From the NCBI RefSeq assembly GCF_002952775.1, contig NZ_CP025066.1:2232001-2296000 (forward strand): a stretch of 64,000 nt of DNA, given 5' to 3'. Position 1 is the stretch's first letter; the number at the start of each line of letters is the position of its first letter. The DNA is from Halalkaliarchaeum desulfuricum (lineage in GTDB: Archaea; Halobacteriota; Halobacteria; Halobacteriales; Haloferacaceae). This document shows positions 10,369 to 27,517 of this stretch, in pieces. The notes beneath the pieces are model-generated. The model searched no databases. It had not been told where the DNA came from and worked only from the letters and a program-made list of their open reading frames with translations. The translations under genes were made by a program, and so were the position numbers.

Positions 10369-10725
10369 CTCGCCCCTGGGTTACATGAAGTCATGAAAAA
10401 TAATTGGATAGAAATACTACTAGTTATTTAAATGGATTTCTTCACAGAGTTCACGGAGTCCCTACTGAAATCCAGACGGCAGAGTAATTGCTAGGAGTCC
10501 TGTCCACCCCTATGACTTTTCTCCTGACCGGGGAGTTATTCACTTATAGCAGAGAAAAAGTTAATTCACTATTGTAACCCCCCAAAAAGTATATAAATCT
10601 GAAGTTGAGAATACTACACATACGAGAAGGACAGTCGCAAAGAACGCTACAGCGCCCGACGCCGGGATCTAACGGTCACAGGTCCCCCTAGATAGCCGGG
10701 TCCAACTCGACAAACACGATCACAC
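10369..10725. other. Intergenic, AT-rich, with probable promoter for next gene
   Basis: No coding sequence is supported here. A good TATA-like element, tatataaat, lies near 10590-10598, about 130 bases before the ATG at 10726. If used, it would give a 5' leader of roughly 100 bases, which is unusual in haloarchaea, where leaderless mRNAs dominate. Confidence 0.45.
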
Positions 10726-12231
10726 ATGAGTGACAAAACAACCTCGGGAGAATTCTACTGCCCTTACGATTCCTGTACGTATAGCGCGCCAACAGAACGA
10801 CAAGTACGCACCCATATCACCTGCGCCACGCACGGCCCTCACGACGGCGTGAACGGCTACACCATCGGCGTCAACGTCCATGCAAGCAACGGCCAGACGC
10901 ACTCTTACGAGAACACAAACAAAGTACAACTTGAGGAGACTCGGTTAGAACACATCACTGACGAAATCTCATTCAGTAAACAAATCATCTTGCTGAAAGC
11001 GTACAACAATCCTGAGGCCTCCTATACCAAGATCCATGAACTAATTCGTGACGAGCGGATCGACTATTCGAATTCAGTCGTCCGAAGAACAATTAAAAAA
11101 TACGTCGAAAAGGCCCCCTCTTGGTCGGATTCGAACGATGCCCAACGATCCGGTCCTAGTGAGTCGACCGAAGAGTCCGTTGAACCTGACTGGGTTGACT
11201 TTGATAAAGTGGATCCCACCCCCCTGAGTGCCTCGCCATATGACGATCCAGTCAGCGAACCGGTCCAAAATGAGGGTTCTGCAACCGGAGAGACGACTTC
11301 AGAATCAGCAGCGCCGAAACAATCGTCACGCATTACTGATGGATCAAATCAAGTAACACCTGACGACCATTCCTTGCAGAATTCGACAGAGGCAGGACCA
11401 AACTTTCCGTATGACGTCGAGGCGGTTCCGGACTGCTGGAGCCCTACGGCAACAAAGATCATCGCAGCATACGAAGCGCTTGGTGACAAAACCCGGGCTG
11501 AGGTTCACGAAATTCTCACGCAGGAACACGGCATGGAGATTTCGAAGTCACTCGTGTACAAGGTATTGTACGGGTGGGAAAAACAGAACCTGGACGATTT
11601 AACGGCAAAGGAACAACGCGCCATCAAAGCAATAGTCAACAAAGACGACAACGAAACGCTGGCTGATATAGCTAACCGGCTGGACTGCAACAAGGGCTGG
11701 CTGACATTCTTGAAGTACATTTACCCACACATTCTCGTCGCAGAAGGCGGGCACGTCTCCGAAATGAGGAACGAGTTAAACCTGTCAAACGCCCCATTCG
11801 ACATCGACACGACCCTCGACGCAGATTCATGGACGAAGACGCAACGTACCATAATTAGTGCACACGAGGCAATCGACCATTCCACCGATCGAGAACTACA
11901 GAACAAACTTACTGCCATCGGGATCCACATCTCAAGGAGTACGATTCGACAAACACTTTCGGAGTATATCGGAATCGACCGTCGCAGCAATCGACTGAAA
12001 GCAAAGGAAAAGACGTACGAAGATCTCAATGACCGGCAGCAAGACGCTGTCGATATCCTCGCCAACGCTCCACCAGCGGCCAACATCACAAAGCTCTCTG
12101 ACACGGTCCCTGAAACGAGAGGATACCTCTACGACATCAACGACCGATTCCACCACGTCATAGAGAATCAACGAGAAGAAAACCCTGATACCGATACTTC
12201 ATCCCACGAAAAACAGCACATCACTAGTTGA
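10726..12231 (+). CDS. Zinc-finger protein with repeated HTH-like segments
   Basis: A 501-residue protein of unknown function. The N-terminus carries a C2H2-like zinc finger (C12, C17, H30, H36). At least three later segments look like helix-turn-helix units with similar wording: SYTKIHELIRDERIDYSNSV, TRAEVHEILTQEHGMEISKS and STDRELQNKLTAIGIHISRS. A polar low-complexity linker (about 140-225) separates the first from the rest. It is probably a DNA-binding regulator or nucleoid protein. It converges with the AAA ATPase at only 16 bases and lies just before the Argonaute cluster, so it may regulate or belong to it; this is not shown. Confidence 0.7.
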   Translation: MSDKTTSGEFYCPYDSCTYSAPTERQVRTHITCATHGPHDGVNGYTIGVNVHASNGQTHSYENTNKVQLEETRLEHITDEISFSKQIILLKAYNNPEASYTKIHELIRDERIDYSNSVVRRTIKKYVEKAPSWSDSNDAQRSGPSESTEESVEPDWVDFDKVDPTPLSASPYDDPVSEPVQNEGSATGETTSESAAPKQSSRITDGSNQVTPDDHSLQNSTEAGPNFPYDVEAVPDCWSPTATKIIAAYEALGDKTRAEVHEILTQEHGMEISKSLVYKVLYGWEKQNLDDLTAKEQRAIKAIVNKDDNETLADIANRLDCNKGWLTFLKYIYPHILVAEGGHVSEMRNELNLSNAPFDIDTTLDADSWTKTQRTIISAHEAIDHSTDRELQNKLTAIGIHISRSTIRQTLSEYIGIDRRSNRLKAKEKTYEDLNDRQQDAVDILANAPPAANITKLSDTVPETRGYLYDINDRFHHVIENQREENPDTDTSSHEKQHITS

Positions 12232-12247: not shown

Positions 12248-13927
12248 TCAGCAGATGAGTAAGAACAGCCAGTACGGCAGATAACAAACGCTGACGGCAT
12301 CTTTTTCGATAATCAACGTTTCATTTTCTCTGACTTCCTTTGGCAGGCTGTCAGTGATGATGAATCGGTACGGCGCTTTGTAGTCTATGTCTCGAAGTTC
12401 TTCACTGTCTGATTTCGTATGCTGCCCGGCCTCTGGGTCGAATTCTTCGGCGATTGTTTCGGCGTTGTCAGTATACGGGTGGTAGGAGAGGACGAATGGG
12501 AGGACGTGTCCGTTGCGGTGGAGGATGTAGTCAACGAGGCCGGATTCGGTTTCGGTGTATTCGACGTCGTATGCTCCGACGTTGAAGGCGAGTCGTTTGG
12601 CGTGGTCGAAGGCGACGGTGCGGGCGAGTTTGTATTCGAATTCGTGGTTGAGGGTGTCTTGTCGTTCGTACGCCTCGAAGCCGTGGTGTTCCTGGCGTTG
12701 AGAGAGGAGAACGAGGTGCCGTGGGTTGCGGAGGTACAAGCGGGTCCGGCGGTAGCGTCGCAGGGAGTAGTCGTGAGATTCGGTGACGGCGATTCCTTCG
12801 TCGAGTACGTCGAGGTAGTTGTCGACGGTTCGCCTGTCGACGCCGATTTGATCGCTGAGGTCGGTGTACTGGAGTTCGTCACCGGCGTTGGTGGCGGCGA
12901 TGGAACTGAGTCGGTGGAGATTTTCGGGTTGTTGGATGGATCGGTATTTGGCGAGTTCTTTGTAGAGGAATAGGAGGAAGTGGGATTTTGCGAGGTCGTT
13001 ACGGATCGATGCGTCGTCTGTTTGGTGGAGGGTACCACCTGTTCGGAGGTATGCGCGCGCAGCGTCGTGGAGGTTGTTTCGGTCGTCCGTGTCGAAGATG
13101 TCGAAGCAGAGTTCCGAGAGTGTCTCAACCGCTGTGTCGAGACTGGTTTCCGAATTCGTTCCGGAAAGCCCGGTTCGAATTGTTTTGATTGGCGACGGAC
13201 CGTCTAAGTCGGACGATTGGAATTGTTCGAGTCTGTTTCGGAATTCCTTATTGAATTCGACACCGAGACCCTCGCCGGTTTGGACGGTGTCGATGAATTT
13301 CATCGGGAGGATGGGCCATGGGCCTTCGAATTCATCGACGGTGTCAGCGGTTCCGACGTTTGAGAAGGAGACCTGTGCGTGGACGTTGCCGGTTAGGAAT
13401 ACGTACGTATTGTCGTCGATGAGATCAAGTAGCTCTGCTTTGCGGTTCTCGTCGAGATCAAGGGCTTGGACATCGTCGAGAAGAATGAATTTTTGTCCTT
13501 GACGGGGGGCGACGTGTGTCTGGAAATAGTCGATAACCTGGTTGAGGCGTTTGATGTCGTTGCCTGGGCGTTCCAGCTGATACAGCGAGTCTTCTAAAGG
13601 AAGGTAAAGGATTTGTCTGGGGGAAAACGCGGAGGTGAGTTCGAGGTCTTGGTTTTGGTGTGGGAATTCAGTTGTGTTGAGGAGTGCTGCGATGAGTTGG
13701 TGGAGAAGCGTGGTTTTGCCGATGCCGGTTTGTCCGTGAATTGCGTAGACGAGACTCTTGACATCGTCAGTATAGTGAGTGTTTGTGCTCTTGAGGACGC
13801 TGTGGAAATCAGAGCGAGGGGTGAGTTTTGTTGCCTGCGATAGTTCTGGGGAAGCGCCGTCACTCCACCACTGGTTGTGGTGTTCCGCGTCATCGATGAA
13901 CTCTTCTGCGTTCCCTGTATCAAGCAT
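12248..13927 (-). CDS. AAA ATPase with C-terminal DUF4143-like domain
   Basis: A 559-residue P-loop ATPase. Walker A is GQTGIGKTTLL (about 67-77) and Walker B is FILLDDVQALD, followed by the sensor-like FLTGN. The C-terminal third resembles DUF4143, a winged-helix and nuclease-like region with E-x(n)-VDYIL and a following basic stretch, common in archaeal ATPases of the DUF4143 group. These often sit in variable islands; their role is poorly known. It is divergent from the Argonaute gene across about 260 AT-rich bases. A link to the Argonaute system is only positional. Confidence 0.78.
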   Translation of the reverse strand: MLDTGNAEEFIDDAEHHNQWWSDGASPELSQATKLTPRSDFHSVLKSTNTHYTDDVKSLVYAIHGQTGIGKTTLLHQLIAALLNTTEFPHQNQDLELTSAFSPRQILYLPLEDSLYQLERPGNDIKRLNQVIDYFQTHVAPRQGQKFILLDDVQALDLDENRKAELLDLIDDNTYVFLTGNVHAQVSFSNVGTADTVDEFEGPWPILPMKFIDTVQTGEGLGVEFNKEFRNRLEQFQSSDLDGPSPIKTIRTGLSGTNSETSLDTAVETLSELCFDIFDTDDRNNLHDAARAYLRTGGTLHQTDDASIRNDLAKSHFLLFLYKELAKYRSIQQPENLHRLSSIAATNAGDELQYTDLSDQIGVDRRTVDNYLDVLDEGIAVTESHDYSLRRYRRTRLYLRNPRHLVLLSQRQEHHGFEAYERQDTLNHEFEYKLARTVAFDHAKRLAFNVGAYDVEYTETESGLVDYILHRNGHVLPFVLSYHPYTDNAETIAEEFDPEAGQHTKSDSEELRDIDYKAPYRFIITDSLPKEVRENETLIIEKDAVSVCYLPYWLFLLIC

Positions 13928-14149
13928 AGAACCGATTATTCTGCGCTAGTACAAATATTCACGTATCCTGATGTCCCTATTTTAATTCTATCTGAAGATC
14001 TCTGTTCTCCGCGGTTTTTGAGGACTATTCACGGCCTCGTCGTTGTCTGGTGCTGTCTCCGCAGCGTCCGCCGAACCGTATTTAGAAGAGTTACGTTATT
14101 GTAATTCATCTAAAATTCAGTTTTCGTGTTTTAGATTCGCCTAGTGGAA

Positions 14150-14160
14150 AAATATTTATT
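14150..14160 (+). promoter_or_regulatory. Probable TATA box of the Argonaute operon
   Basis: The element aatatttatt lies about 29 bases before the ATG at 14185. No other gene start with comparable spacing to such a box is seen between here and 25452, so one promoter may drive all five genes, although a second one before 16918 cannot be excluded. Confidence 0.55.
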
Positions 14161-14184
14161 CTGGGCGTCCGTTGGTCGGTGTAG

Positions 14185-16854
14185 ATGGCAGTGAAGGCCG
14201 ACATCGAGGATGGGGAACAGATCGATATCTCACTGCGCGTCACAGGGACTGACGAGTGGGATCACGACGATATCGCTCGAAAAGTCCAGTTTGAGGACGT
14301 CGAAGGAACACCAGTGGAACTGACTGTGTTCCACAATAACGAGGCCTCGGATTTCGAGTGGGGCGTTGGGCGCTGGTACGAACTGGAGAACGCGGTCGGG
14401 AACGAATTCCGCGGTGAGATGCAACTCAACGCAGGGTATGACCTGACCGTCACGCCACTAGATGAGCCGCCGGCTGCGGCCCAGAGTGGCGAGTCTGAGA
14501 ACTCTCCGGCTGAGCGATCCAGTGGGAGTGATCATAGCCGGTCCGCAAAAGAGGCAGAACCGAACGAAGAGACGGAGTTCGTGCGGGGGAGTGAAGTAAC
14601 GAGCGAGCCACGCCCGACGACAGATGGGGGTGGTGAGCTCTTACACCAGCAACCGTTGTCGGAGGGGAACTACCTGTTGCAGTTCGAACTCGGGGAACTT
14701 CCGGAGCTCACGGTCCACGAGTATGAACTCCGCGCGACCGGGAGAGGAGGGATCGATCCAGACGATTTCACGAACGGGATCGAGGGGTTCACAGCGAAAG
14801 CGGCGAACTACTACCAGTCACGAATCGGGAGTCCTGTGATCACAGCCGATGCGTCCCAGCGATGCATCTACGCGACCGAGAAACTCCACGGCACGATTTC
14901 GATCCACGGGTACACGGTCGAGCCTGTACATCAGGGAGAGACGGCGCTGGAGGCGCGCTCGTACACGAACGATGGGCCACTTCAAGAGTTCGTCAAGCAA
15001 GATGTGAAGCGCGCGGTCACGGGTCGTTTCGAGGTGTCGGGGATCGATTCGATTATTGAACCCACGCCGCAGCGAACAGCGAGCAGCGGGTTGTTCGAAG
15101 CCTATCGGAAGTACAAATGCCGGATTCGCGTCGATGCTGATGGAACCGTGATCTGCGGTGTGAATGTCGCCTATCATCTTGAATCGACGTTCTCCGCCGC
15201 CGAGTGGGTGCAGCGCGGGCACGATATTGCCGGCGTGAATGTCGAGCACGACACTGACCTGTACGACAGTGCTCGCACGGCGACGGTCGAGGAGATCGTC
15301 GACATGGACTACGATGACGTGCTGGACGGGCCGGGTGTTCCAATGTCGGAGTACCACGAGAGGTACGTCGAGCAGGACGTCATCGATTCGATGCGGGAGA
15401 GTGACCCGATCATCGCGGATCTGCAGTACGGGAGCGGCGAGGATTCGATCTTCCCGCAACTCCTGGAATACTGTAAGGTTATCCCGACGTTTGACCAGTT
15501 GGGCAGGGTTGATGAGACGTTCCTGAACGTTATCCACAACGAGAGCCGGATGAAACCGGAGAAGCGGTTCAACGTCGTCACGTCGTTCGTTGACTTGCTT
15601 GGCCCGACGCCATACTTCGGCTTCGACCCTATCCCGCAGCCCACGAACGCGGGGTACCGTGAGCACAAGACGCCGAATATCCCGAACCTTCGATTTGGCG
15701 ATGGGAAAACGGGATATTACGGGGCCGGCGGGCTGGAACGGAAGGGATACGGGATCTACAAGGCACCCGAGTCGTTCGACGTCATCGCGCTGTACCCGAA
15801 AGAAGAGGAGGATGACGCACGGCCGTACGTGCTCTCGCTGCTCAACAAGCTCGCGGACTACGATGCGAGTCCGACTAAGTTCGACCGCGACACCTACGAA
15901 CTCGGTTCGGAGTTCCACTACTCCCAGCACGCACAGAAAGCGAGCGACTACGATGCGGCACTGATCGTGGTACCGGAGAAAGAAGAGGCTAGGACAGCGG
16001 ACTACGATGACCCGTATCCCGAGTTTAAGCGTCAGCTCGGACAACTCGGCGTGCCGAGTCAGATGATCTCTGTCGACAGTCTCGGCAACAGCAACTACCG
16101 CGGGAACATTTGCTCGTCCCTTATTGGGAAAGCGGGCGGGGTGCCGTGGCGTATCGACGAAGTTCCTGGGGACGTTGATGCGTTCGTCGGGCTCGACGTG
16201 ACGTACGACCACGCGACCAAGCAACACCTCGGCGCGGCCGCGAACGTCATCATGGCTGACGGAACGATCCTCGCGTCCGAGGCGGTCACGAAACAGGCTG
16301 GCGAGACGTTCGACGAGGATGACGTAGCGAACGTCATCAAGCACGTTCTAGAAATCTTCGCAGAGGAAGAGGGGCGGCCACCACGACACGTCGTCATCCA
16401 TCGGGACGGGAAGTTCTACCTCGACGTCGAGAGCCTCATCAACCGTCTCGACAAAGCCCGCGATCTCATCCAACGGTTCGACCTCGTCGAGATTCGGAAA
16501 TCCGGGAACCCCCGTATCGCCGAGTACGACGAATCGAACTCACAGTTCGTTATCGCGGACAAAGGCGTCGCCTTCCATGTCCACAACGGCGAGCACTCCT
16601 ACCTGACCACGACCGGCGGAAAGGAGGGCAGCCCTGGCACGCCGCGACCGCTACAGATCGTGAAACGGCACGGATCGACAGATCTCGACACGCTCGCGGA
16701 GCAAACCTACTGGCTCTCGGAAGCACATGTCGGGTCGCTGAGCCGGTCCACGCGACTCCCCATCACCACGTACTACGCCGACAAATGCGCCGACTTCGCC
16801 ATGAATGGATACCTCACCAAAGGCAGCGTCATCCGCGGCGTCCCGTACATCTGA
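14185..16854 (+). CDS. Long prokaryotic Argonaute, N. gregoryi Ago type
   Basis: An 889-residue Argonaute, the guide-directed nuclease family. Residues 1-95 look like an OB-fold domain, followed by a polar linker to about 150, as in Natronobacterium gregoryi Ago; N, PAZ-like, MID and PIWI regions follow. MID carries the 5'-phosphate pocket residues of the Y-K-Q-K pattern: Y611, K615, Q626 and K649 (the last in GKAGGVPW). PIWI has the full catalytic set: D671 (GLDVTYD), E707 (QAGETFD), D741 (IHRDGKF) and D866 (YADKCAD). It should therefore cleave targets. Guide type is unknown. It heads a five-gene cluster with nucleases and helicases, 63 bases before the next gene. Confidence 0.95.
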   Translation: MAVKADIEDGEQIDISLRVTGTDEWDHDDIARKVQFEDVEGTPVELTVFHNNEASDFEWGVGRWYELENAVGNEFRGEMQLNAGYDLTVTPLDEPPAAAQSGESENSPAERSSGSDHSRSAKEAEPNEETEFVRGSEVTSEPRPTTDGGGELLHQQPLSEGNYLLQFELGELPELTVHEYELRATGRGGIDPDDFTNGIEGFTAKAANYYQSRIGSPVITADASQRCIYATEKLHGTISIHGYTVEPVHQGETALEARSYTNDGPLQEFVKQDVKRAVTGRFEVSGIDSIIEPTPQRTASSGLFEAYRKYKCRIRVDADGTVICGVNVAYHLESTFSAAEWVQRGHDIAGVNVEHDTDLYDSARTATVEEIVDMDYDDVLDGPGVPMSEYHERYVEQDVIDSMRESDPIIADLQYGSGEDSIFPQLLEYCKVIPTFDQLGRVDETFLNVIHNESRMKPEKRFNVVTSFVDLLGPTPYFGFDPIPQPTNAGYREHKTPNIPNLRFGDGKTGYYGAGGLERKGYGIYKAPESFDVIALYPKEEEDDARPYVLSLLNKLADYDASPTKFDRDTYELGSEFHYSQHAQKASDYDAALIVVPEKEEARTADYDDPYPEFKRQLGQLGVPSQMISVDSLGNSNYRGNICSSLIGKAGGVPWRIDEVPGDVDAFVGLDVTYDHATKQHLGAAANVIMADGTILASEAVTKQAGETFDEDDVANVIKHVLEIFAEEEGRPPRHVVIHRDGKFYLDVESLINRLDKARDLIQRFDLVEIRKSGNPRIAEYDESNSQFVIADKGVAFHVHNGEHSYLTTTGGKEGSPGTPRPLQIVKRHGSTDLDTLAEQTYWLSEAHVGSLSRSTRLPITTYYADKCADFAMNGYLTKGSVIRGVPYI

Positions 16855-16917
16855 CCATGCACCATCACAGGCCCACACAACCACCCACGTACCCGTCGAC
16901 ACACCGATAACCCTCGC

Positions 16918-19038
16918 ATGACTAAGACAGAATTCGAAGCCACAGTCGAGTTCGACGACGGCAGCACCGCCGAACTGGAGATGGCTGCCGACAAATCATG
17001 GGATAGCTTCCTGAACTACTTCGGTGACGCCCAGCACGTTTACTGCGTCACGTACAGTCAGTCCCCCGCGTTCATCTACAAAATGTTTCAGAACCAGGAC
17101 CTCGCAGTAGATTCACTGGAGGTCATCGTCGGGGACAACCAGCACGACGACTACCGGCGCTCGCTGAAAAACACGAGCAACGCAAAGAAAATCGCCGCGC
17201 AACTGGAATCGCTGCGCCAAGACGGTGATCTGCTCATCCACACCGTCGATTCCGCCCGCGTCCTACTTCACACGAAACTCTACATCGTCGAGAACCAGGA
17301 CGGGTCACGTACACTCATTTGTGGGTCGGCGAACCTCTCCAAGCAGGCCTGGCAGGGGAGCAAGCAAACTAACGTCAACATCGCTTGGCGTACCGATGGA
17401 GACACGCCCGTTGACGAGTGGTTCGAACGGCTCTACGCGTTCCATAAGGAGTACGCGACGCCGTTCATGGAGGACCTCACCGAGGAGATCGAAGACGCCG
17501 AAACGGCAGAAGAAGAGGCGAAGATCTACGATATTTGGCTGGGTGGCGACGAGTTCAGTGACGACCCGGTCGCCGAGCTGAACGCCCGGCTCGACGAAGC
17601 AGTTGACGATGACCAGGTCAATACGTACAACGTCGTCACCGACGCCGAAGAGGCAGAGAAAGCGGTATTCGCCGCTGAAGAGACGGATACTGATCCGACC
17701 GAGATCAGCCCGGACAAGCGAGTCCGCCTCTCTCCACAGGGACTCGAAGACGCGATCTCGAATCTCGACGACACACTATCTGCCAATAACATTCGGATCA
17801 ACGACGGCGAAATCGTAGCGACACCCGCCGGTATCGCGCGGTACAAAGAAACCTTCACCGGGTATCCAGACCTCAACGTCGATAGAGACGACAAACAGGT
17901 CGGATTGCGGGTTGACGACTCCGTTCTAGAACTCACGGCACCACTACCGGATGACCCGCAGGGAGTCGCTGACGCACTCGACCTGATCGAGCAGTACATC
18001 GAAACTGTCGGCGAGTTCGGCGAAACGCGAACGCCAAAGGAGACACGGGCGCACTTCTACGAGGGGATTATTTACTTCTGCTGGGCTCCGTTCGCTAACT
18101 ACTGTGCCCATCACTACGCCGAATACGAGTCCGCAGAGCTGGATAAGGACCTCCCGTTCCTGTTTCTCCACGGTGACAACGACAGCGGGAAAGGCATGTT
18201 CCTGCGGTTCGGAACGCGGCTCATTTCGAACGGGTACGTACAGGAGGTCACGACCGGGGACGACTTCGTCAAAAACAACATTGAGCGCGCTCGTGCGTCG
18301 GACACTGTTTTCCCGTACATCGTTGACGACGTGGCGAAGTCGAAAATCGACCGGGACATCATCAAGTCGTACTGGGAGGGGAAGTGGGACGGGTCCATCC
18401 AGATGCCGACGTTCATTTTCTCCTCGAACGACTCCACGAAGCCGAAATCCGAACTCCGCACTCGGATGAAGACGCTGGATTTCAACGTCAACTTCTCCGA
18501 ACTGAAGAAGGACGAACGCGAAGCAGCCGCGCAGATCGCGGGGCAAGCAGACAGTTGTAACCTGTTCCCGTGGTTCGCCCATCTGTTCTTACAGCGGGAT
18601 ATCTCGCTTCCAGACCAGTCGGATCGGCTCGCGGATGCTCGGGACGTGTTCGCGGAGTTGTACGCGTACGCCGGGAAGGAACCGCCGGAGTACGTGCCGC
18701 TGGAGACACCCGCCGAGCAGGAGCACGATCCGGGGCGTCGAAAGTGGATCAGTGCCTTATCCGACGGGCTGTGTGAACTCGATTTCAAGGACGACGGGCG
18801 GATTGTTGCTGATTTCTCAGCGAATCTGGATCAGCAGCAATGCTGGGAGTTCCAGAAGGCCACACCAGCCCATATCCGAGCCAATATTTACGGGCCGGCG
18901 GTACAGTTTGAAAGCGCGAACAGGTTCCAAGATTGGATTGATGAGTCCGGTATCATCGAAGCTGCACGACGCGATACCGAGACAGCCGCTGACAACACTG
19001 GTGTTCTGTCTCGGGTTACGCGGCTCGTCCGAGGGTAA
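16918..19038 (+). CDS. PLD-family nuclease fused to P-loop NTPase
   Basis: A 706-residue two-domain protein. Residues about 30-190 form one PLD repeat with H118-x-K120 and GSANLS at 136-141; the acidic position of the HKD motif is Glu125 rather than Asp. One-repeat PLD nucleases work as dimers. Residues about 405-560 form an NTPase: Walker A-like GDNDSGKGM near 419-427, Walker B in YIVDDVA, a sensor in FIFSSND and an Arg-rich stretch after it, resembling SF3/AAA+ proteins. An acidic linker joins them. It may be an ATP-driven DNA nuclease serving the Argonaute. It sits 5 bases before the next gene. Confidence 0.82.
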   Translation: MTKTEFEATVEFDDGSTAELEMAADKSWDSFLNYFGDAQHVYCVTYSQSPAFIYKMFQNQDLAVDSLEVIVGDNQHDDYRRSLKNTSNAKKIAAQLESLRQDGDLLIHTVDSARVLLHTKLYIVENQDGSRTLICGSANLSKQAWQGSKQTNVNIAWRTDGDTPVDEWFERLYAFHKEYATPFMEDLTEEIEDAETAEEEAKIYDIWLGGDEFSDDPVAELNARLDEAVDDDQVNTYNVVTDAEEAEKAVFAAEETDTDPTEISPDKRVRLSPQGLEDAISNLDDTLSANNIRINDGEIVATPAGIARYKETFTGYPDLNVDRDDKQVGLRVDDSVLELTAPLPDDPQGVADALDLIEQYIETVGEFGETRTPKETRAHFYEGIIYFCWAPFANYCAHHYAEYESAELDKDLPFLFLHGDNDSGKGMFLRFGTRLISNGYVQEVTTGDDFVKNNIERARASDTVFPYIVDDVAKSKIDRDIIKSYWEGKWDGSIQMPTFIFSSNDSTKPKSELRTRMKTLDFNVNFSELKKDEREAAAQIAGQADSCNLFPWFAHLFLQRDISLPDQSDRLADARDVFAELYAYAGKEPPEYVPLETPAEQEHDPGRRKWISALSDGLCELDFKDDGRIVADFSANLDQQQCWEFQKATPAHIRANIYGPAVQFESANRFQDWIDESGIIEAARRDTETAADNTGVLSRVTRLVRG

Positions 19039-19043
19039 TAGAC

Positions 19044-21101
19044 ATGTCTGATCACTCATCTCACCGGCGGTTCGACGGGACGTTAGTCACGGTACCGTTC
19101 GGTGCCGAGAACGTCGAACGGACAGCACGAGACGAATACCGGATGCTCCTCGACGAGTACGATTCTGAGGACGTGCTCGTCATCACGGGTGCGCCGACGA
19201 GTACGGACACGTTTCGGGAGACGATAGGTGAGGAACTGCCGGGCGCAGCGATCCCGTACGTGACGTCGCCGGTGGTGCACGCAACCGATGTCCTCAACCA
19301 GACTGATGACCGCGTCATTCTCTCTGATGCGCTGCGGCGTGAACTCCTCCATCGATTCCTGGCAGACTACGAATGGGAAACCGAATACCTCCAACGGGCG
19401 TCTGAACAGCCGTCGTTCATCGAGGACGTAGACGCTGTGATGAGTACGATCACCTGGCAGGTGGTCACGCCTGATGAAACCCCGGAACTCTGTGACATCG
19501 CGGCTGCGCTCGACGCGTTTCACGAGTGGCTCGCCGAGCACGATCATATGGAGCGCGGGCAACTCATCTCGGAAGCGCTCGATGTCCTCACCGGGGAAGC
19601 CCGCGATGACGTCGTCGATTTCGATACGGTGCTTGCAGTCGAGTTTGAGGAATTCTTCCCGCTTGACCGCGCGTATCTCGACGCACTCGCTGGAGACTGC
19701 GATCTCGTCTGTGTCGCTGAAGAGAACGCGAGTGTGCGCCGTTCGTGGGTCGAGACAGGGCCGGTCACGGACTACGTCTCGTTCAGCGAGTCCCGACGTG
19801 GTGCGTCGGGGCCACCGTCGACGCGACCAGCTGCGACGGCAGCCTATTTCGCCGAAGCAACGGTTCCGGAGGATCCGGGAGTCGGGTCGGTCTCCGTTCT
19901 CGCTACGGACTCTAGCGACGAACAACTCGCCGAGATTGCGAACGAAATCGAGGAGCTCGTCGCGCAGCCGGACTGGAGTTACGACGATATCGCGGTCGCC
20001 ACGAAGCAAAGCGGCAGCACTGTTACGGACATTATCGAAGCGTTCGAAGGCACCGGGATTCCAACGGAATCGACAACCGTCACCGGGTTCGGTGACGATC
20101 CAGCGATCCGGGTAATCCTCGCGGCGGTTCGGTATCTCGCCGCCGATGGAGATAATGTACCCGACCACGGTCCGGAGCTCGATACAGAGCGCTTGGACCG
20201 TGTCAGTGAGATGGATAGCCTCGAAGACGGGATTCGCTGGTGGACGACGGACTCCGGGTTGAAAGAGCGGATCGCGGAGCGGGCGGCTCCGTTGGATGCG
20301 CGGGCGCAGTTCGGGAACGTCAAGCGAGCGTTCCGGATGGCCGAGTTCGTCGAAGAGACCGAGTTCGTGGATGCGACGTGGGAGTCTTTCAAGGAGATGC
20401 TCGAACGCGCTCACGAGTACGCATCGCAGCAGAATCAGACGAGTGCGACGGATCTAGACGGCGGCGTCCGCGTCGATCACTTGCAAGCGGTTAAGAACGA
20501 GTCCTTCCGCGCGGTGTTTCTCGTGAATCTCGTCGACAGTGAGTACCCAGGTGACCCGCTTCTGACACGGTTGTTCCCGAGTGAGCGAGTCGCGTCGATG
20601 CCGGACTACCCTGGTGTGACGGAACTCGATGGAGCGGATGTGGATGCGACGTTCCCGACTGAATCGACGGCATCCGGGCGAGCGTTCACACGGTACCACA
20701 CGGAGCACGCACGGCGAGGCCTGGCTATCGGCGCAGAGACAGCGACAGAGCGGCTGTACTGCTGTCTCTACGAGTACAAAGACACGGCGCTTGAAGAGCG
20801 GGCGCAGGCATCACGGTTCCTGACCGCGGCGTACGACGATCTGTCGTGGGTCACCGAAGCCGCCGACCCACACATCACCAGTGAGCAGGCGGCGGAAGAC
20901 TATCTTCTGTCGCGGGTTGATGACGCGCTCGCGGAGGTGCGGCGCGCGAACAGCCAGGACGTGACAGTGTCACTTGACGAAGTAGAAGCTGAACTCGGGG
21001 AGATTCAGGACGTACTCGATAAAAGCGGGGCGCGTGGGGAGGAGCTTCGCAAGGCGTTGCGTGCGCGTGTCGAGTTTGCCAACGGGGAGGTGCAGCGATG
21101 A
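19044..21101 (+). CDS. AddB/RecC-like degenerate UvrD-family protein
   Basis: A 685-residue protein that resembles a UvrD-type helicase which has lost its ATPase. There is no Walker A motif in the N-terminal region. VLAVEFEEFFPLDRAYLDAL occupies the position of the Walker B/DEXX region, and VRVDHLQAVKNESFRAVFLVNL followed by DSEYPGDPL matches helicase motif V as it appears in AddB/RecC subunits. No C-terminal nuclease is attached; the next gene supplies one. I infer a scaffold subunit of an AddAB-like complex. It overlaps the next gene by 4 bases. Confidence 0.72.
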   Translation: MSDHSSHRRFDGTLVTVPFGAENVERTARDEYRMLLDEYDSEDVLVITGAPTSTDTFRETIGEELPGAAIPYVTSPVVHATDVLNQTDDRVILSDALRRELLHRFLADYEWETEYLQRASEQPSFIEDVDAVMSTITWQVVTPDETPELCDIAAALDAFHEWLAEHDHMERGQLISEALDVLTGEARDDVVDFDTVLAVEFEEFFPLDRAYLDALAGDCDLVCVAEENASVRRSWVETGPVTDYVSFSESRRGASGPPSTRPAATAAYFAEATVPEDPGVGSVSVLATDSSDEQLAEIANEIEELVAQPDWSYDDIAVATKQSGSTVTDIIEAFEGTGIPTESTTVTGFGDDPAIRVILAAVRYLAADGDNVPDHGPELDTERLDRVSEMDSLEDGIRWWTTDSGLKERIAERAAPLDARAQFGNVKRAFRMAEFVEETEFVDATWESFKEMLERAHEYASQQNQTSATDLDGGVRVDHLQAVKNESFRAVFLVNLVDSEYPGDPLLTRLFPSERVASMPDYPGVTELDGADVDATFPTESTASGRAFTRYHTEHARRGLAIGAETATERLYCCLYEYKDTALEERAQASRFLTAAYDDLSWVTEAADPHITSEQAAEDYLLSRVDDALAEVRRANSQDVTVSLDEVEAELGEIQDVLDKSGARGEELRKALRARVEFANGEVQR

Positions 21102-22003
21102 GTTCTGAATCGCTCTCCCCGTCGCGGCTGGCAAATTACGCCACGTGTCCGCGACTGTACGATTACAGGTACGTCCAGGATGTGAACACGCCGGACAGGA
21201 CAGAACTCTACCTCAATCAGGGAACGATCTATCACGAGACCATCGAGGACGTGTGTGATGCGACCGAGCGTGACGATGCTGCAGAGACAATTCACGACCG
21301 CGCGATGGATATCTTCGCGGCGAAGTGGGCGGAACACAGCAACTCGGACGACTACGAATCTGACGCCCATCAGGAATACCAGCGGCGTGAGAACCGGGCT
21401 GCCGTCGAGTCGTTCTTCGACCCGGATGGCGGTGACGGCATCGAGCACGCACGTCACTCGGTCGCCACGGAGTGCTGGGTGGAATGCGAACGCGATGGCC
21501 GCGGCCTCCACGGGAAAGCTGACAACGTCATTCGGACGGACGAAGGACTGCACATCTTCGATTACAAGCGGAACACGCGCGGTGTCCTTTCTTCCAGGAC
21601 AGCCGAGTATCTCGGCGAGCACCGCGACGGTGAGGCGCACGAGCCAAAGCGTGTGCGAAACGCGTTCCAGACGGCGACCTACATTGAGGGCGTGAAGAAC
21701 GAACCGTTCTACGAGGGCGGGATGACGGTTCGGTTCAGTTTCTACGGCCTGCTCAACAGCACGTCGTTCGAGAGCACACCAACCGGGTACGAGGTGTCTG
21801 CCCGTGGCTATCCACGAGAAACCACGGACATCTACGCGGAGCACCACGACACGATCTGGGCGCTCATCCGCGCCGCGCACGACGGCATCACGGGAGAAGC
21901 CTACGAGCCGGAGCCGTTCGACCTCATCAACGAGGAGGCGTGCCCGGACTGTGACTATCGAGAGATGTGTGCTGACCGCCTGTCGACGGAGGTGCGACGA
22001 TGA
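21098..22003 (+). CDS. Cas4/AddB-type Fe-S PD-(D/E)XK nuclease
   Basis: A 301-residue nuclease of the RecB/Cas4 group. Motif I contains H46, motif II is D142 (GKADNV), and motif III is D155-Y-K157 (FDYKRN). Four Cys, C17 near the N-terminus and C282, C285 and C291 at the C-terminus, match the 4Fe-4S cluster of AddB and Cas4. In AddB this domain is the C-terminal part of the helicase-like subunit; here it is encoded separately, directly after the AddB-like protein. Its ATGA overlaps on both sides indicate translational coupling within a complex. Polarity of cutting cannot be told. Confidence 0.88.
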   Translation: MSSESLSPSRLANYATCPRLYDYRYVQDVNTPDRTELYLNQGTIYHETIEDVCDATERDDAAETIHDRAMDIFAAKWAEHSNSDDYESDAHQEYQRRENRAAVESFFDPDGGDGIEHARHSVATECWVECERDGRGLHGKADNVIRTDEGLHIFDYKRNTRGVLSSRTAEYLGEHRDGEAHEPKRVRNAFQTATYIEGVKNEPFYEGGMTVRFSFYGLLNSTSFESTPTGYEVSARGYPRETTDIYAEHHDTIWALIRAAHDGITGEAYEPEPFDLINEEACPDCDYREMCADRLSTEVRR

Positions 22004-25000
22004 GCAACGATACTGACGAGTACCCCTCGTGGTTCCCCGTTCCGGAAGAAGACGTTTCCCCGGAGCCCCAACAGCAGAGGATCATCAACTCCGACGCCTA
22101 CCCGATGCGTGTACTCGCCGGGGCAGGGACCGGGAAGACCTTCACGATGGTGCGGAAGATCGAGCACCTCATCGACGAGGAGGACGTGTCTCCGGATCGA
22201 ATTCTCGCGTTGACGTTCACGAACAACGCCGCGAACTCGATGCAGGAGAAACTCAACGCAAAACTCGGAGTTGCTGGGTACGACATCGACGCGTACACGT
22301 ATCACTCGATTTGTAACGAGATTCTCTCTGACTACGCCTACGAAGCCGGCCTTGACCCCGACTTCGAGGTTGCCACGGACGCCGAGAAGTACGCCATCGT
22401 GCTGGACGTGCTTGACGAGATCGAGTACCGGGCAGTCAAACCGAACGTGTACGGAGATAACGGGTACGCGTCCGGAGCGGCATCGAAACTCCTCAATTTC
22501 ATCGGGTCGATGAAACGAAACGGCATCACGCCCGAAGACATCGACGAATTCCTCGGTCCTGCTGCCCGCGTCTACGAACTCGTCGACGTTCGGGAGCGAA
22601 TCGAGGCGATTGCCAGCGACCACCTGGGTGGCCGTTCGGTTTCGAGCGTGCTGGACTCGCTCCCAGATGCACGCGCAGAGCTCGTTACGGAACGTGACGC
22701 GCTAGGGAGGGACGGCATGGAAGCTAGCGTGCGCGATTTCCTCGACCGACTCGTTGACCTCTGTGAGGCGCTGGAAGCCGCGTTCGAGGCCCATGAAGCG
22801 GGCGAGCGAGAACTACCAGACAACGCGTATAAACTCCCGAAATACATGCTCGGCGGGTACGCAAGCGGCGCGCCGACAGGGATTCCAGGGAACCTCGATC
22901 TTGAACTCACAGATCACCTCGATTCGTTCCTCTCTGACTGTCTCACTGCCCGTGACCTGACGGCAGGGTATGCGGCGTACGAGCGAGAACTCGACGAGCG
23001 GAATCTCATCGACTTCGACGGCCTGGTCGTCGAGACAGCTGCACTGATGGATTCGCCGGTCGGTGAGGAAATCGCCGACCGGTGGGACTACGTGTTCTGT
23101 GACGAGTTCCAGGACACGGACCGCCTCCAGTTCGACCTCGTTACGTCACTCGTCACGGACGACAACCTGTTCGTCGTCGGTGACGACGACCAGGCGATCT
23201 ACGAGTGGCGCGGCGCACACGTCGCCAACATCACCGACGAACTCGACCGAGCATTCACGGCACTCACTGACGAACCGCTGGAGGAGAACTTCCGCTCCCG
23301 ACAACCGATCCTCGATCTGGCGAACGAGGCGATTCAGAAACTCGACCACCGCGAACGACACAAGACACTGAAACGCGTCGACGAACCCGCGTATGACGGG
23401 GACAGTGTCGCTACCGTCGAACTCCAAGACGAGGACGACGCAGACGGCGCGGCCCAACTTCGTACCGTCGTCCAGAATCTATTGAGCGGTGCAGCAGAAA
23501 ACCTCGACGAGGCGTACGATCCAGGTGACATCGCCCTCCTCGTCCGGAAAAACGACCACGCGACACCCGTCATTGAGGAATTCGACGATGCTGGCATCCC
23601 GTACCAAGTTGCTGGCAATTTGGCCACCGAATCAGTCGGCGTCAGGACTGTCACCGCCTATCTGAAAGCGCTCGCTCGACCCGAAGACGAGGTGAGTTGG
23701 AATCGCGTCCTCCTGATGCGGTACCGGCTCTGTGACGCAGACCTCCGCACGCTCAACGTCGGCGACGACCCGCTCGTCGACACGCTCCGTACCACACCGC
23801 TCGACGAGTTTGAGGAACCCGACCGCGTCGCAGAAGCCCGTGAGCACGCCACGGAACTGCTCAACCTCCGTGACTCGGCATCACTCAGTCACCTGTACCG
23901 CGAACTCACGGATCTCACGAACATCGAGTGGTATCTCAGCGAGCAGGAGCGCCGCGATCTCACCCAGCTTGAGAACGTCATCGAACAGTACGGGGACAGT
24001 GCCGTCCAACCACCGCTCACCCCGGAGTTCATCGACTCGCTCGAACACTACGACTCCCTGTTCGACGAAAGTGGCACCACACCCACGAGCCAACCGGACG
24101 TCGCAGACGACGCGGTCAACGTGATGACCATCCACAAGAGCAAGGGGCTGGACTTCCCCGTCGCCCTCATCCCGCAAGTTACTGCCGACGAGTGGGCACC
24201 GAGCTCACGCACGTACGACGCGCTCGAAACGGGACTCTCGGACGGTGCAGACGCGGCGTTCGCCGAGGACTTTGTTGAGCGTGATTCCCGTGAGACACGC
24301 CGTGTATTCCACGTCGGGATTACACGCGCCGAAGACATCCTCGTCCTACAGGGTGGAAGCGAGGAAGATGACGACGCGGACTTACATCCGGTTTCAGAGA
24401 CGGTCGACGAGATTCTGCCACCCCGAATCCCGTGGCAGGCAGAGCGAGGACAGCTCCCACTCTGGGACGACGTTCAGGAGTGTCTCCTGGACAAGGCAGT
24501 AGACTGGACCAACACGCTGGCCAGCGAGACTGTCGGAAACATCGGCGGTGCCGTCACTCACGATGGGGAAGATCTCAGCGTTGAGGCTGCGCGCGACCGC
24601 GTGCTAACCCTTGCTACGGCCACCCTTGACGGGAGTCTCTCACCGAGAACCGAGCGGGAGATCCTTCGGGTTGCGTCGCTGACTGGCCCGGCGACTCATT
24701 CACCATCGCTCTCTCACAGCTACACGTCGTTAGCGGCCTACGAGGAGTGCCCACGGAATCACTACTTGGAGTACGTCGTCAACGCCTTCTCCGATTACCA
24801 GGAGACCACGAGTGGTCCCGGGGGTGGTGTGTCACAACGCGAAATTGGATTACTGTTTCACGACACCGCAGAGCAAGCCGCGAATCAAGAGATAGAACAC
24901 CGTGAGGAGTGGTACGAGATCTGCGAGCGACTCGCCAGCCAGCGTCGCGCCGAGGACGCGCTCCCGGCGGCGAAACAGTGCATCGACCGGTACTTCGAGT

Positions 25001-25452
25001 TAGCGCTCTCCAGTTACGAAGTCGTCGACGCAGAACGGAAATTCGAACTCGATATTAATGGGCACGAGCTCGTCGGCTACATCGACGCAGTCTACCGAAC
25101 ACCGGACGACGAGCTCCTCGTCATCGATTACAAAGCAACGGAGCGCCACCGTGACCTGCAAGACGACAAGCAACTGCCGATCTATCTATTAGCGTGCCGC
25201 GACCTGTACGACGAGCCAGTGGCACGCGCGGGATACGCTTATGTCGGAGAAATTGGCCCGAAGATCGAGTCCCGACCGTTCAGCGACGCTGAGCTAGAAA
25301 CAGTCAGAAACGATGTAACGGAGGCAATGGACCGCATTGCTGAGTTCTCATTCAGTCGGTACAGTGCTGGCGACCACTGTCAGTGGTGTCAACACAACCA
25401 ACTGCCTTGTGCACCGGACTCGTTCACCGTCGGGCCTGGATTCGAAGAGTAG
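22000..25452 (+). CDS. AddA-like UvrD helicase with C-terminal Fe-S nuclease
   Basis: An 1150-residue SF1A helicase-nuclease. Walker A is GAGTGKT at 41-47, motif II is DEFQD near 368, motif III is GDDDQAIYEWRG, motif IV is ENFRSRQPI, motif V is TIHKSKGLDFPVALI and motif VI is HVGITRAED. The C-terminal 240 residues form a PD-(D/E)XK nuclease with D1029, D1043 and K1045, and Cys at 917, 1127, 1130 and 1137 that would bind 4Fe-4S. AddA of bacteria has a nuclease but no such Cys set, so this tail is closer to the AddB/Cas4 type. It closes the Argonaute cluster and should unwind and trim DNA ends. Confidence 0.92.
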   Translation: MSNDTDEYPSWFPVPEEDVSPEPQQQRIINSDAYPMRVLAGAGTGKTFTMVRKIEHLIDEEDVSPDRILALTFTNNAANSMQEKLNAKLGVAGYDIDAYTYHSICNEILSDYAYEAGLDPDFEVATDAEKYAIVLDVLDEIEYRAVKPNVYGDNGYASGAASKLLNFIGSMKRNGITPEDIDEFLGPAARVYELVDVRERIEAIASDHLGGRSVSSVLDSLPDARAELVTERDALGRDGMEASVRDFLDRLVDLCEALEAAFEAHEAGERELPDNAYKLPKYMLGGYASGAPTGIPGNLDLELTDHLDSFLSDCLTARDLTAGYAAYERELDERNLIDFDGLVVETAALMDSPVGEEIADRWDYVFCDEFQDTDRLQFDLVTSLVTDDNLFVVGDDDQAIYEWRGAHVANITDELDRAFTALTDEPLEENFRSRQPILDLANEAIQKLDHRERHKTLKRVDEPAYDGDSVATVELQDEDDADGAAQLRTVVQNLLSGAAENLDEAYDPGDIALLVRKNDHATPVIEEFDDAGIPYQVAGNLATESVGVRTVTAYLKALARPEDEVSWNRVLLMRYRLCDADLRTLNVGDDPLVDTLRTTPLDEFEEPDRVAEAREHATELLNLRDSASLSHLYRELTDLTNIEWYLSEQERRDLTQLENVIEQYGDSAVQPPLTPEFIDSLEHYDSLFDESGTTPTSQPDVADDAVNVMTIHKSKGLDFPVALIPQVTADEWAPSSRTYDALETGLSDGADAAFAEDFVERDSRETRRVFHVGITRAEDILVLQGGSEEDDDADLHPVSETVDEILPPRIPWQAERGQLPLWDDVQECLLDKAVDWTNTLASETVGNIGGAVTHDGEDLSVEAARDRVLTLATATLDGSLSPRTEREILRVASLTGPATHSPSLSHSYTSLAAYEECPRNHYLEYVVNAFSDYQETTSGPGGGVSQREIGLLFHDTAEQAANQEIEHREEWYEICERLASQRRAEDALPAAKQCIDRYFELALSSYEVVDAERKFELDINGHELVGYIDAVYRTPDDELLVIDYKATERHRDLQDDKQLPIYLLACRDLYDEPVARAGYAYVGEIGPKIESRPFSDAELETVRNDVTEAMDRIAEFSFSRYSAGDHCQWCQHNQLPCAPDSFTVGPGFEE

Positions 25453-25770: not shown

Positions 25771-26406
25771 ATGGCTGATCGTTACCCCGACGATTGGAAC
25801 AGGCGCCGACGAGAAGTGTATCGCAGAGACGGATATCGCTGTCAGAATTGTGGCGCGCGAGGCGGTCGGATCGGCAATACGGAGCTTCATGCCCATCATA
25901 TTGTCCCGATAAGCCAGGGCGGCCGACACAAGAAAACGAATTTGGTGACGGTCTGTAAAGCGTGTCACAACGCCATTCACGGAGAGGGAATCGCTCCGGT
26001 TTCATTCCATGCCGGGGATTTCTCCGATCGAGTAACGAACGCCATCGAACGGTACTATCGAACTGACGACCACGAGGATGGATACGTTCGCCTCGGAAAA
26101 TCCGACAACACAAAAGATGAGGCCCAGCGTCAGGTTGATCGTGGTCGGAACGAGGAATACGGTGGCTGCCCGAACTGTGGGTCATTCACACTAACCGTCA
26201 GTTGGGTAGGGTTGAAACCAGGATCAAAAGTCAAGCTCGTCGAGTGCGAATCGTGTTCGACGCAATACGACGAGTCGATCGAAACCCAAGACGGAACCAC
26301 AAACCGGACGCTGCACGAAATCGATGACCCGTCGGACTCGGAACCCGCCAGATCCGCATTTCTCGAAGAGTTAAAAACTCAGATCCGGTTGCTGTTGAAC
26401 CGATAA
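25771..26406 (+). CDS. HNH endonuclease with zinc ribbon
   Basis: A 211-residue protein. The N-terminal half is an HNH nuclease: CxxC zinc pair (CQNCGARGG), the LHAHHIVPISQGG core with catalytic His, an Asn in KKTNLVTVC, and the CKACHNAIHG zinc loop. The C-terminal half has CPNCGS and CESCST pairs, a likely zinc ribbon for nucleic-acid binding. HNH proteins of this size occur as restriction or homing-type nucleases and as defence effectors. It has its own spacer after the Argonaute cluster, so membership in that system is doubtful. Confidence 0.82.
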   Translation: MADRYPDDWNRRRREVYRRDGYRCQNCGARGGRIGNTELHAHHIVPISQGGRHKKTNLVTVCKACHNAIHGEGIAPVSFHAGDFSDRVTNAIERYYRTDDHEDGYVRLGKSDNTKDEAQRQVDRGRNEEYGGCPNCGSFTLTVSWVGLKPGSKVKLVECESCSTQYDESIETQDGTTNRTLHEIDDPSDSEPARSAFLEELKTQIRLLLNR

Positions 26407-26746: not shown

Positions 26747-27517
26747 TCAGATCTTTTTTTGAGATAAACCTTTATACCTAGTCTTTGATCTGAAGTCACT
26801 CCGAGATGTGTTGTAAAGATTAGCTAAGGCTACAAAATGCCACCATTCCTGAGATGATCCAGTCCATACTATCTCTTCAGTCAGATTTCGGGGACCTGTT
26901 TTTGAAACCGATGGTCCATTGAGTTCATTCGCTTCCTGAGAGCTATTACAAGATGAAAAGTCTCTGTCTTTTGCCAATTTTTGGGTTTCTAATGTAGTTT
27001 TTTGATTGGAACGGTCCATTTTACCGGTAGGAATTGTATGGCCATGTTCCTTCTCATGGCAACTATGACATAGTGTTATCAAATTATTAATTCGATCTTC
27101 CCCACCTTTTGATTTCGGTACGATGTGATGAACATCAACTCTTTCATTACCATATGGACCACCTCTCTTACCGCACTTTTGACACTCCCATTTGTCCTGT
27201 TTTAATGTTCGAATTCTAAGTTCATCCCAATTTTCTGCATAATTTCCGGGAGAGCGGGATTCCGGTGTTCCAAAATTTGTTTTCGCACTGGGTAATGGTT
27301 CTATGATATTTTCCTTTAGTTTTACTTTAAGAATATGTTTGCACCCACCGCCTGGTTGATTTTTCTTCCAATCTGGACATTCACATACTGGAATTGAGAT
27401 ATCAACCTCATAGTTGATTCCCCTATTACCATTTACTATGTACGTATTTTTCCCGGCCTTCGATCTGACAAATATATCTTGATTTTCGGCCCGCCATTGC
27501 CGGCGACGGTCAACCAT
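26747..27517 (-). CDS. SWIM zinc-finger and HNH endonuclease protein
   Basis: A 256-residue protein. Residues about 40-70 carry a SWIM finger of the C-x-C-x(n)-C-x-H form (CECPDWKKNQPGGGCKH). Residues about 105-165 are an HNH nuclease with CQKCGKRGG, VHHIVPKSKGG, INNLITLC and CHSCHEKEHG. The last 90 residues are unassigned. The gene is strongly AT-rich and Lys/Asn-rich compared with its neighbours, which points to recent transfer from another lineage. The SWIM finger suggests nucleic-acid or protein binding that targets the nuclease. Confidence 0.83.
   Translation of the reverse strand: MVDRRRQWRAENQDIFVRSKAGKNTYIVNGNRGINYEVDISIPVCECPDWKKNQPGGGCKHILKVKLKENIIEPLPSAKTNFGTPESRSPGNYAENWDELRIRTLKQDKWECQKCGKRGGPYGNERVDVHHIVPKSKGGEDRINNLITLCHSCHEKEHGHTIPTGKMDRSNQKTTLETQKLAKDRDFSSCNSSQEANELNGPSVSKTGPRNLTEEIVWTGSSQEWWHFVALANLYNTSRSDFRSKTRYKGLSQKKI

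What the first reader, a model, noticed from the sequence alone, without database searches (positions are those of the whole stretch)
14185..25452. Catalytic Argonaute clustered with an AddAB-like helicase-nuclease and a PLD-NTPase
Seen: five co-directional genes with gaps of 63 and 5 bases and two 4-base overlaps. Known: bacterial CbAgo relies in part on RecBCD processing of DNA ends for guide generation, but there the helicase-nuclease is a separate housekeeping enzyme. Inference: here the end-processing machine travels with the Argonaute, giving a self-contained DNA-targeting defence unit in which helicase-nuclease products feed the Argonaute or the Argonaute's cuts feed the helicase-nuclease. 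I know of no described system with this exact gene set.
Basis: partly seen in the sequence, partly recalled or inferred. Interest (0 to 1): 0.95.

Follow-up and report, generated by a model that had tools for sequence, protein, structure and literature searches.

The report
Argonaute locus with DNA-end-processing genes
In salt-loving archaea, a DNA-cutting Argonaute and its partner nuclease sit in one conserved gene block with a machine that unwinds and trims DNA ends, a set-up that could test where Argonautes get their guide DNA, although the Argonaute half is already published and the machine also occurs without it.

Summary
The real unit has six genes; a divergent AAA_14/DUF4143 ATPase gene (12248-13927, minus) shares a conserved 257-bp promoter region with ago.

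The block is conserved. In all 13 sampled genomes with an intact close Argonaute (85-100% identity), spread over several families, every gene that the contig covers is present in the same order, and all six genes are under purifying selection. But:
(1) Argonaute+PLD is the APAP system published in 2024 (PMC11442185), which also noted neighbouring helicases.
(2) The AddAB-like trio (AddB-like, Cas4-like, UvrD-nuclease) stands alone. Twenty further haloarchaeal loci with AddB at 75-88% identity lack this Argonaute, and the ago-PLD part has decayed repeatedly beside intact trios.
(3) One close Argonaute (80%) has no partners.

The wider pattern is more novel. Other, distant haloarchaeal Argonautes lie within 7 kb of a second kind of end-processing set (Mre11-Rad50-NurA, some with HerA) in 14 of 40 genomes, with about 0.1 expected at random.

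I read the locus as APAP docked on an exchangeable DNA-end-processing module, probably supplying guides or degrading cut DNA. The direction of flow is untested. New variant of a known kind.

The parts
12248..13927 (-). AAA_14/DUF4143 ATPase (559 aa), divergent from ago; sixth member of the unit
   Evidence: AAA_14 1.6e-8, DUF4143 2.9e-8; 80-90% identical copy at the same place in every intact close Ago locus of the 392-genome sample; dN/dS 0.125; also divergent to Ago-PLD without trio (60-66%) and to the trio without Ago (55%)
13928..14184 (.). shared divergent promoter region between the AAA_14 gene and ago
   Evidence: 255-260 bp in 20 of 21 loci, two conserved blocks; TATTTATT about 35 bp before the ago start kept in the alignment
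14185..16854 (+). long-A Argonaute, 889 aa, N-terminal OB/RPA-like domain, intact DEDX tetrad (D671, E707, D741, D866)
   Evidence: Piwi 7.9e-21; PADLOC pAgo 1066 bits; CpAgo/CbAgo best PDB relatives; tetrad invariant; weak RPA match of residues 6-94
16918..19038 (+). AgaP-type PLD nuclease fused to a P-loop ATPase domain, 706 aa
   Evidence: PLDc_2 2.5e-7; H118, K120, G136, S137, N139 and Walker A GDNDSGKG, D470-D471, R514/R516 invariant or nearly so; model pLDDT 76, Foldseek NgoAVII R-protein, SauUSI, Nuc, weakly SaPI5 primase-helicase
19044..21101 (+). AddB/AdnA-like helicase-like subunit, 685 aa, no Walker A, no nuclease domain
   Evidence: profile of 14 relatives: best PDB hit B. subtilis AddB 3u44_B E 9.8e-9, AdnA 2e-4; no GKT/GKS in 14 aligned sequences
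21098..22003 (+). Cas4-like FeS PD-(D/E)XK nuclease, 301 aa
   Evidence: PDDEXK_1 8.8e-23; C17, H46, D142, D155-Y-K157, C282, C285, C291 invariant in 10 relatives
22000..25452 (+). UvrD-family helicase fused to FeS PD-(D/E)XK nuclease (AddA/AdnB-like), 1150 aa
   Evidence: UvrD-helicase 3.7e-61, UvrD_C 2.2e-28, PDDEXK_1 3.3e-26; PcrA/UvrD, AdnB and AddA relatives in PDB; Walker A G41-T47, DEFQD 368-372, D1029, D1043-Y-K1045, C917/C1127/C1130/C1137 invariant

Best explanation
The locus is a horizontally spread haloarchaeal defence unit. A published-type effector pair (APAP: catalytic long-A Argonaute plus PLD-ATPase) has been docked, in one transcription unit, on an autonomous AddAB/AdnAB-like end-processing module (AddB-like scaffold + separate FeS Cas4-like nuclease + UvrD helicase-FeS nuclease), with an AAA_14/DUF4143 ATPase transcribed divergently from a shared promoter region. 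Proposed working: the module loads on free double-stranded ends of invading or cut DNA, unwinds and clips it; single-stranded fragments are taken up by the Argonaute as guides; the guided Argonaute, with the PLD nuclease, cuts complementary invader DNA, which makes new ends for the module. Shown by sequence: gene content, order, catalytic residues, co-conservation, purifying selection, one-sided dependence (trio without Ago is common, Ago of this clade without trio is rare). Inferred: co-transcription, complex formation, the flow of ends and guides, and the role of the AAA_14 protein (regulator or loader).
For: Anatomy. Linkage: the six genes in the same order in close homologue loci, with a 5-nt PLD-AddB junction in 18 of 20. 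Trio presence in 15 of 15 genomes of this Ago clade against 46 of 392 genomes overall (hypergeometric 1e-15, not corrected for kinship). Flanking window genes are not conserved with the block. Halosimplex aquaticum and H. carlsbadense: Ago 49-52% with the trio upstream, same strand. dN/dS 0.05-0.13 in all six genes with similar dS. Other haloarchaeal Agos sit within 7 kb of an accessory Mre11-Rad50(-NurA) set in 14 of 40 genomes, 0.1 expected; the housekeeping rad50 lies near none; 0 of 20 Ago-less trio loci hold such a set. Literature: plasmid and ssDNA-virus immunity of APAP (PMC11442185); CbAgo cutting works with RecBCD processing (PMC10164581).
Against: The trio lacks this Ago in 20 of 35 loci with AddB >=75%, and Ago/PLD have decayed several times beside an intact trio, so the trio does not need Ago. 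YIM A00013 has an intact 80% identical Ago and no detectable AddB in its genome. No experiment shows defence, guide loading or interaction for this locus. Defence genes cluster anyway, so the random-position null overstates significance.
Confidence: 0.55

Rival explanations
1. Two independent defence modules that happen to share a transcription unit and a mobile island: APAP (Ago-PLD) and an AddAB-like exonuclease. They act in parallel on invading DNA without exchanging DNA intermediates.
For: Each half occurs without the other: trio alone, Ago-PLD alone (PMC11442185). Trio presence is not raised in genomes with other Ago clades (6 of 40, P 0.32).
Against: Fixed order and 5-nt junction across many genera, rearranged but retained association in Halosimplex, and repeated pairing of other Agos with a different end-processing machine are not expected of indifferent neighbours.
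Confidence: 0.25
2. Argonaute cuts feed the helicase-nuclease: Ago/PLD make nicks or breaks and the trio, like RecBCD after CbAgo cutting, degrades the cut invader. The trio does not make guides.
For: CbAgo cleavage triggers RecBCD processing in E. coli (PMC10164581); the trio keeps two intact nuclease sites and a helicase.
Against: Sequence does not separate this from guide supply. The near-obligate need of this Ago clade for a trio fits guide supply at least as well, since any cell exonuclease could degrade cut DNA.
Confidence: 0.15
3. The locus serves DNA repair or recombination (decatenation, break repair) rather than defence: an accessory recombination machine with Argonaute as a cutting subunit.
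For: AddAB and Mre11-Rad50-NurA-HerA are repair machines; Argonautes can aid chromosome separation (PMC10269773).
Against: Patchy presence, transfer between families at 85-90% Ago identity and frequent decay of ago-PLD fit defence better than core repair; an APAP homologue is experimentally anti-plasmid and anti-virus (PMC11442185).
Confidence: 0.05

Closest known systems
APAP (haloarchaeal long-A pAgo + AgaP PLD protein; Cheng et al. 2024, PMC11442185)
   Same: Long-A pAgo with intact DEDX next to a gene with an N-terminal PLD domain, intergenic distance 63 bp (published range 31-64 bp); the authors note a helicase gene beside some ago-agaP operons
   Different: Here the pair is in one unit with three AddAB-like genes and a divergent AAA_14 gene; the PLD motif is compact HxK(x)15GSxN, not the split (x)49 form of N. 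pellirubrum AgaP; the C-terminal ATPase domain is not mentioned in that paper
AddAB / AdnAB / RecBCD helicase-nucleases
   Same: UvrD-type motor fused to a PD-(D/E)XK nuclease plus an inactive helicase-like AddB/AdnA subunit; FeS-type cysteines
   Different: AddB is split: helicase-like part and FeS nuclease are separate genes; the AddB-like subunit lacks Walker A; far below the AddA and AddB equivalog cut-offs; archaeal, accessory and patchy
UvrD-Cas4 fusion proteins (pfam12705 branch; Hudaiberdiev et al. 2017, PMC5704561)
   Same: Cas4-like nuclease fused to UvrD helicase, in defence contexts
   Different: Described contexts are Type III restriction-modification and Dcm/Vsr; that paper does not mention Argonaute
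pAgo-associated orthogroups (Ryazansky et al. 2018, PMC6299218)
   Same: og_6 UvrD-type proteins with PD-(D/E)XK motifs, og_56/og_60 Cas4, og_136 PLD reported in pAgo operons
   Different: Listed one by one over all pAgos; no defined operon composition, no haloarchaeal AddB-Cas4-UvrD trio, no Mre11/Rad50/NurA/HerA mentioned
CbAgo with housekeeping RecBCD (PMC10164581)
   Same: Catalytic pAgo acting together with a helicase-nuclease on DNA ends
   Different: RecBCD is an unlinked host enzyme there

Membership tests
APAP (long-A pAgo-PLD) | long-A pAgo with complete DEDX tetrad | tested here: met
   D671, E707, D741, D866 invariant
APAP (long-A pAgo-PLD) | adjacent gene with N-terminal PLD domain and HxK/GSxN residues, intergenic 31-64 bp | tested here: met
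   PLDc_2 2.5e-7; H118, K120, G136, S137, N139; 63 bp
APAP (long-A pAgo-PLD) | split motif HxK(x)49GSxN reported for AgaPs | tested here: not met
   (x)15 here; Ago-linked relatives show both 15 and 47-49, so I treat this as a sub-type trait and file the gene pair, not the motif type, under APAP
APAP (long-A pAgo-PLD) | plasmid restriction by PLD and ssDNA-virus immunity by Ago | not testable with these tools
   needs experiments
AddAB | AddA: UvrD-type helicase fused to PD-(D/E)XK nuclease | tested here: met
   but AddA equivalog cut-off not reached (125.9 of 707.65 bits)
AddAB | AddB: helicase-like region and FeS nuclease in one chain | tested here: not met
   685-aa chain without nuclease domain plus separate 301-aa FeS nuclease; so AddAB-like, not AddAB
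AddAB | Chi recognition and end resection activity | not testable with these tools
   no biochemistry
Gabija | GajA (ATPase-TOPRIM) next to GajB (UvrD-like) | tested here: not met
   UvrD gene hits GajB models but no GajA model matches any of the ten proteins scanned in and around the block
UvrD-Cas4 fusions (PMC5704561) | Cas4-like pfam12705 domain fused to UvrD helicase | tested here: met
   protein 5
UvrD-Cas4 fusions (PMC5704561) | Type III R-M or Dcm/Vsr neighbourhood | tested here: not met
   no Mod/Res/Dcm among the block or its scanned neighbours

The most novel reading that the evidence does not exclude
Haloarchaeal Argonautes are in general effectors that plug into exchangeable, accessory DNA-end-processing machines. 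Different Argonaute lineages have joined an AddB-Cas4-UvrD trio or one of at least two Mre11-Rad50-NurA types (one with HerA), with the PLD-ATPase and AAA_14 proteins as shared connectors, and the machine supplies the Argonaute's guides from DNA ends.
Probability: 0.4. Interest if true: 0.88.

Novelty: new variant of a known kind. Interest (0 to 1): 0.7.

Why it matters
How DNA-targeting Argonautes obtain guides from invaders rather than from their own chromosome is still open; in E. coli it involves the housekeeping RecBCD. If haloarchaeal Argonautes carry their own accessory end-processing machines, the guide-supply step becomes separable from chromosome repair and can be tested by removing genes from one small locus in a model haloarchaeon. 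The recurrence with two unrelated kinds of machine would make end-processing a general partner of these Argonautes. It also shows that the PLD-ATPase (AgaP) is not Argonaute-specific.

Tried and rejected
Structure prediction of the AddB-like protein failed (pLDDT 37); profile search was used instead. Lead that 'ARMADA' was an Argonaute system: in the library it is a modification-based defence system, unrelated. Gabija considered because of GajB hits: no GajA. Obligate five-gene system: rejected, since the trio is common without Ago. General enrichment of the trio in genomes with any Ago: tested, not seen (6 of 40, P 0.32). Neighbouring genes 10726-12231 (HTH), 25771-26406 (HNH), 26747-27517 (HNH-SWIM), 28411-31497 (UvrD-like helicase) were tested as members: not conserved with the block. 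Enrichment of accessory Mre11-Rad50 sets: they are also common without Ago (20 of 159 and 13 of 159 genomes), so, like the trio, they are separable modules. NgAgo itself was not retrieved, so relation to it was not tested.
Full report
OBSERVATION. Pfam gives Piwi; PLDc_2; a weak UvrD_C; PDDEXK_1; and UvrD helicase + PDDEXK_1. The Argonaute is long-A; its DEDX tetrad (D671, E707, D741, D866) is invariant in 11 haloarchaeal relatives down to 31% identity. Its N-terminus weakly matches replication factor A. The window lies in a 3.31-Mb single-contig haloarchaeal genome.

THE PROTEINS. The 706-aa protein has an N-terminal PLD site (H118, K120, G136, S137, N139, invariant) and a C-terminal P-loop ATPase (GDNDSGKG, IVDD, conserved arginines). 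An AlphaFold model (pLDDT 76) matches PLD nucleases (NgoAVII R-protein, SauUSI, Nuc) and only weakly SF3-type ATPases such as the SaPI5 primase-helicase (E 0.027). The 685-aa protein matches, as a 14-sequence profile, B. subtilis AddB (E 9.8e-9) and AdnA (2e-4); it has no Walker A motif and no nuclease domain. The 301-aa protein is a Cas4-like FeS PD-(D/E)XK nuclease with all catalytic and cysteine residues invariant. The 1150-aa protein is a UvrD helicase with an FeS PD-(D/E)XK domain, related to PcrA/UvrD, AdnB and AddA. Together they resemble AddAB/AdnAB with AddB split into two genes. That they form a complex is inference.

THE UNIT HAS SIX GENES. I searched 392 haloarchaeal genomes and fetched 20-kb neighbourhoods. 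Thirteen genomes have an intact Argonaute at 85-100% identity. Wherever the contig reaches, the order is AAA_14 (divergent), Ago, PLD, AddB, Cas4, UvrD; the Haloferax profundi contig ends inside the PLD gene, and one copy (Halocatena pleomorpha) has an internal deletion in PLD. Window neighbours outside 12248-25452 are not conserved. Named carriers include Halorussus, Halosimplex, Halorubrum, Halogeometricum, Halostella, Halocatena, Natribaculum, Natronosalvus and Natronomonas, so the block has spread across families. The divergent region between AAA_14 and ago keeps its length (255-260 bp in 20 of 21) and has two conserved blocks with a TATA-like TATTTATT about 35 bp before ago; the PLD-AddB gap is 5 nt in 18 of 20 loci. 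Median pairwise dN/dS is 0.05 (PLD) to 0.13 with similar dS for all six genes.

THE TRIO STANDS ON ITS OWN. AddB at >=75% identity was found in 35 of the 392 genomes; 15 are at Ago loci (13 intact, two broken), 20 are not. At all 20 the three genes are in the same order, one copy running off its contig. On a tree of the concatenated trio, Ago presence changes at least 11 times. Intermediate states are visible: ago cut by an insertion element (L044), ago reduced to frameshifted pieces beside intact PLD (L082), PLD remnants upstream of intact trios (L116, L120, L121, L124). Conversely, only one close Argonaute lacks partners (Halobacteriales archaeon YIM A00013, 80%, intact; no AddB in that genome). 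Dependence is therefore one-sided.

REARRANGED ASSOCIATION. Halosimplex aquaticum and H. carlsbadense encode Argonautes at 49-52% identity with the trio (58-68%) upstream on the same strand, then Ago-PLD. Loci with AAA_14 directly next to the trio, and a 31% PLD protein downstream but no Ago, also exist (L156-L161). AAA_14, PLD and trio thus combine freely.

A WIDER PATTERN. I asked whether other haloarchaeal Argonautes have comparable partners. Many lie beside an operon of Mre11, Rad50, NurA and, in one type, HerA (families confirmed; loci; in L056 the genes are contiguous with Ago, in L049 with a PLD gene between). In the 40 genomes with other Argonautes I counted 24 accessory Rad50 genes besides the housekeeping copy; 14 lie within 7 kb of the Argonaute, about 0.1 expected for random placement; no housekeeping Rad50 does. 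None of the 20 Ago-less trio loci holds such a set. Caveats: several of the 14 are related to each other, defence genes cluster, and these sets are common without Ago too (20 of 159 and 13 of 159 genomes). The PLD-ATPase also sits beside Mre11-Rad50-NurA-HerA without Ago (L162-L164). Trio presence is not raised in genomes with other Argonautes (6 of 40).

MECHANISM. Best reading: the end-processing module loads on invader DNA ends, unwinds and clips; fragments load the Argonaute; Ago and PLD cut complementary invader DNA and create new ends. Support from literature: N. pellirubrum Ago-PLD restricts plasmids through PLD and an ssDNA virus through Ago (PMC11442185); CbAgo cleavage engages RecBCD (PMC10164581). 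The opposite flow (Ago cuts feed the nuclease) and plain parallel action remain open. The AAA_14 protein may be a regulator or loader; its position at a shared promoter suggests regulation, by inference only.

NOVELTY. Ago+PLD is APAP, published, and its authors saw helicase genes beside some operons. UvrD with PD-(D/E)XK motifs, Cas4 and PLD orthogroups were listed near pAgos in PMC6299218, and UvrD-Cas4 fusions in defence contexts in PMC5704561. I found no description, in an open-access library searched by words, of the AddB-Cas4-UvrD trio with Argonaute, of the AAA_14 partner, or of Argonaute with Mre11-Rad50-NurA-HerA; subscription papers and preprints are mostly not covered.

Noticed in passing
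L162, L163, L164 (PLD at 8794-10758, 8398-10347, 8114-10081): PLD-ATPase 47-48% identical to the window's, co-directional with Mre11, Rad50, NurA and HerA-like genes and no Argonaute: a possible separate defence system of PLD plus end resection.
   Followed up: partly
L049 5998-18955 and L056 3439-14000: Argonaute (33%) followed by Mre11-Rad50-NurA-226aa-HerA, in L049 with a PLD gene between.
   Followed up: partly
L156-L161: AAA_14 divergent to AddB-Cas4-UvrD, then a 375-aa unknown gene, a PLD protein (31%), MrfA-like DEAD/DEAH helicases and in some a ThiF-JAB protein; no Argonaute.
   Followed up: partly
L044 (Ago at 12612-13997) and L082 (Ago pieces 11376-12030): Argonaute broken (insertion element; frameshifts and deletions) while PLD and trio stay open. 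N. pellirubrum AgaP was reported toxic without Ago, so how these cells tolerate PLD is open.
   Followed up: partly
L187 and L189 9540-9824 minus: A separate small gene resembling the Argonaute's N-terminal OB domain (32%) sits just upstream of the Halosimplex Argonautes.
   Followed up: no
G238 contig C4 (L045): Mre11 at one contig end and Rad50 at the other, with Argonaute at 5.5 kb: probably a circular plasmid carrying Argonaute next to an end-processing set.
   Followed up: no
window 28411-31497 +, 25771-26406 +, 26747-27517 -: A second UvrD-like helicase (1028 aa) and two HNH genes, one with a SWIM zinc finger, lie downstream but are not conserved with the block.
   Followed up: partly
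window 6265-7134 + and 34017-35417 -: DDE transposase upstream of the block and a PDDEXK_4 nuclease gene downstream.
   Followed up: no
L200 (Halarchaeum acidiphilum): Argonaute (33%) divergent from Mre11-Rad50-NurA and with an AddB-Cas4 module (75-82%) 7 kb downstream: both machine types at one Argonaute.
   Followed up: no
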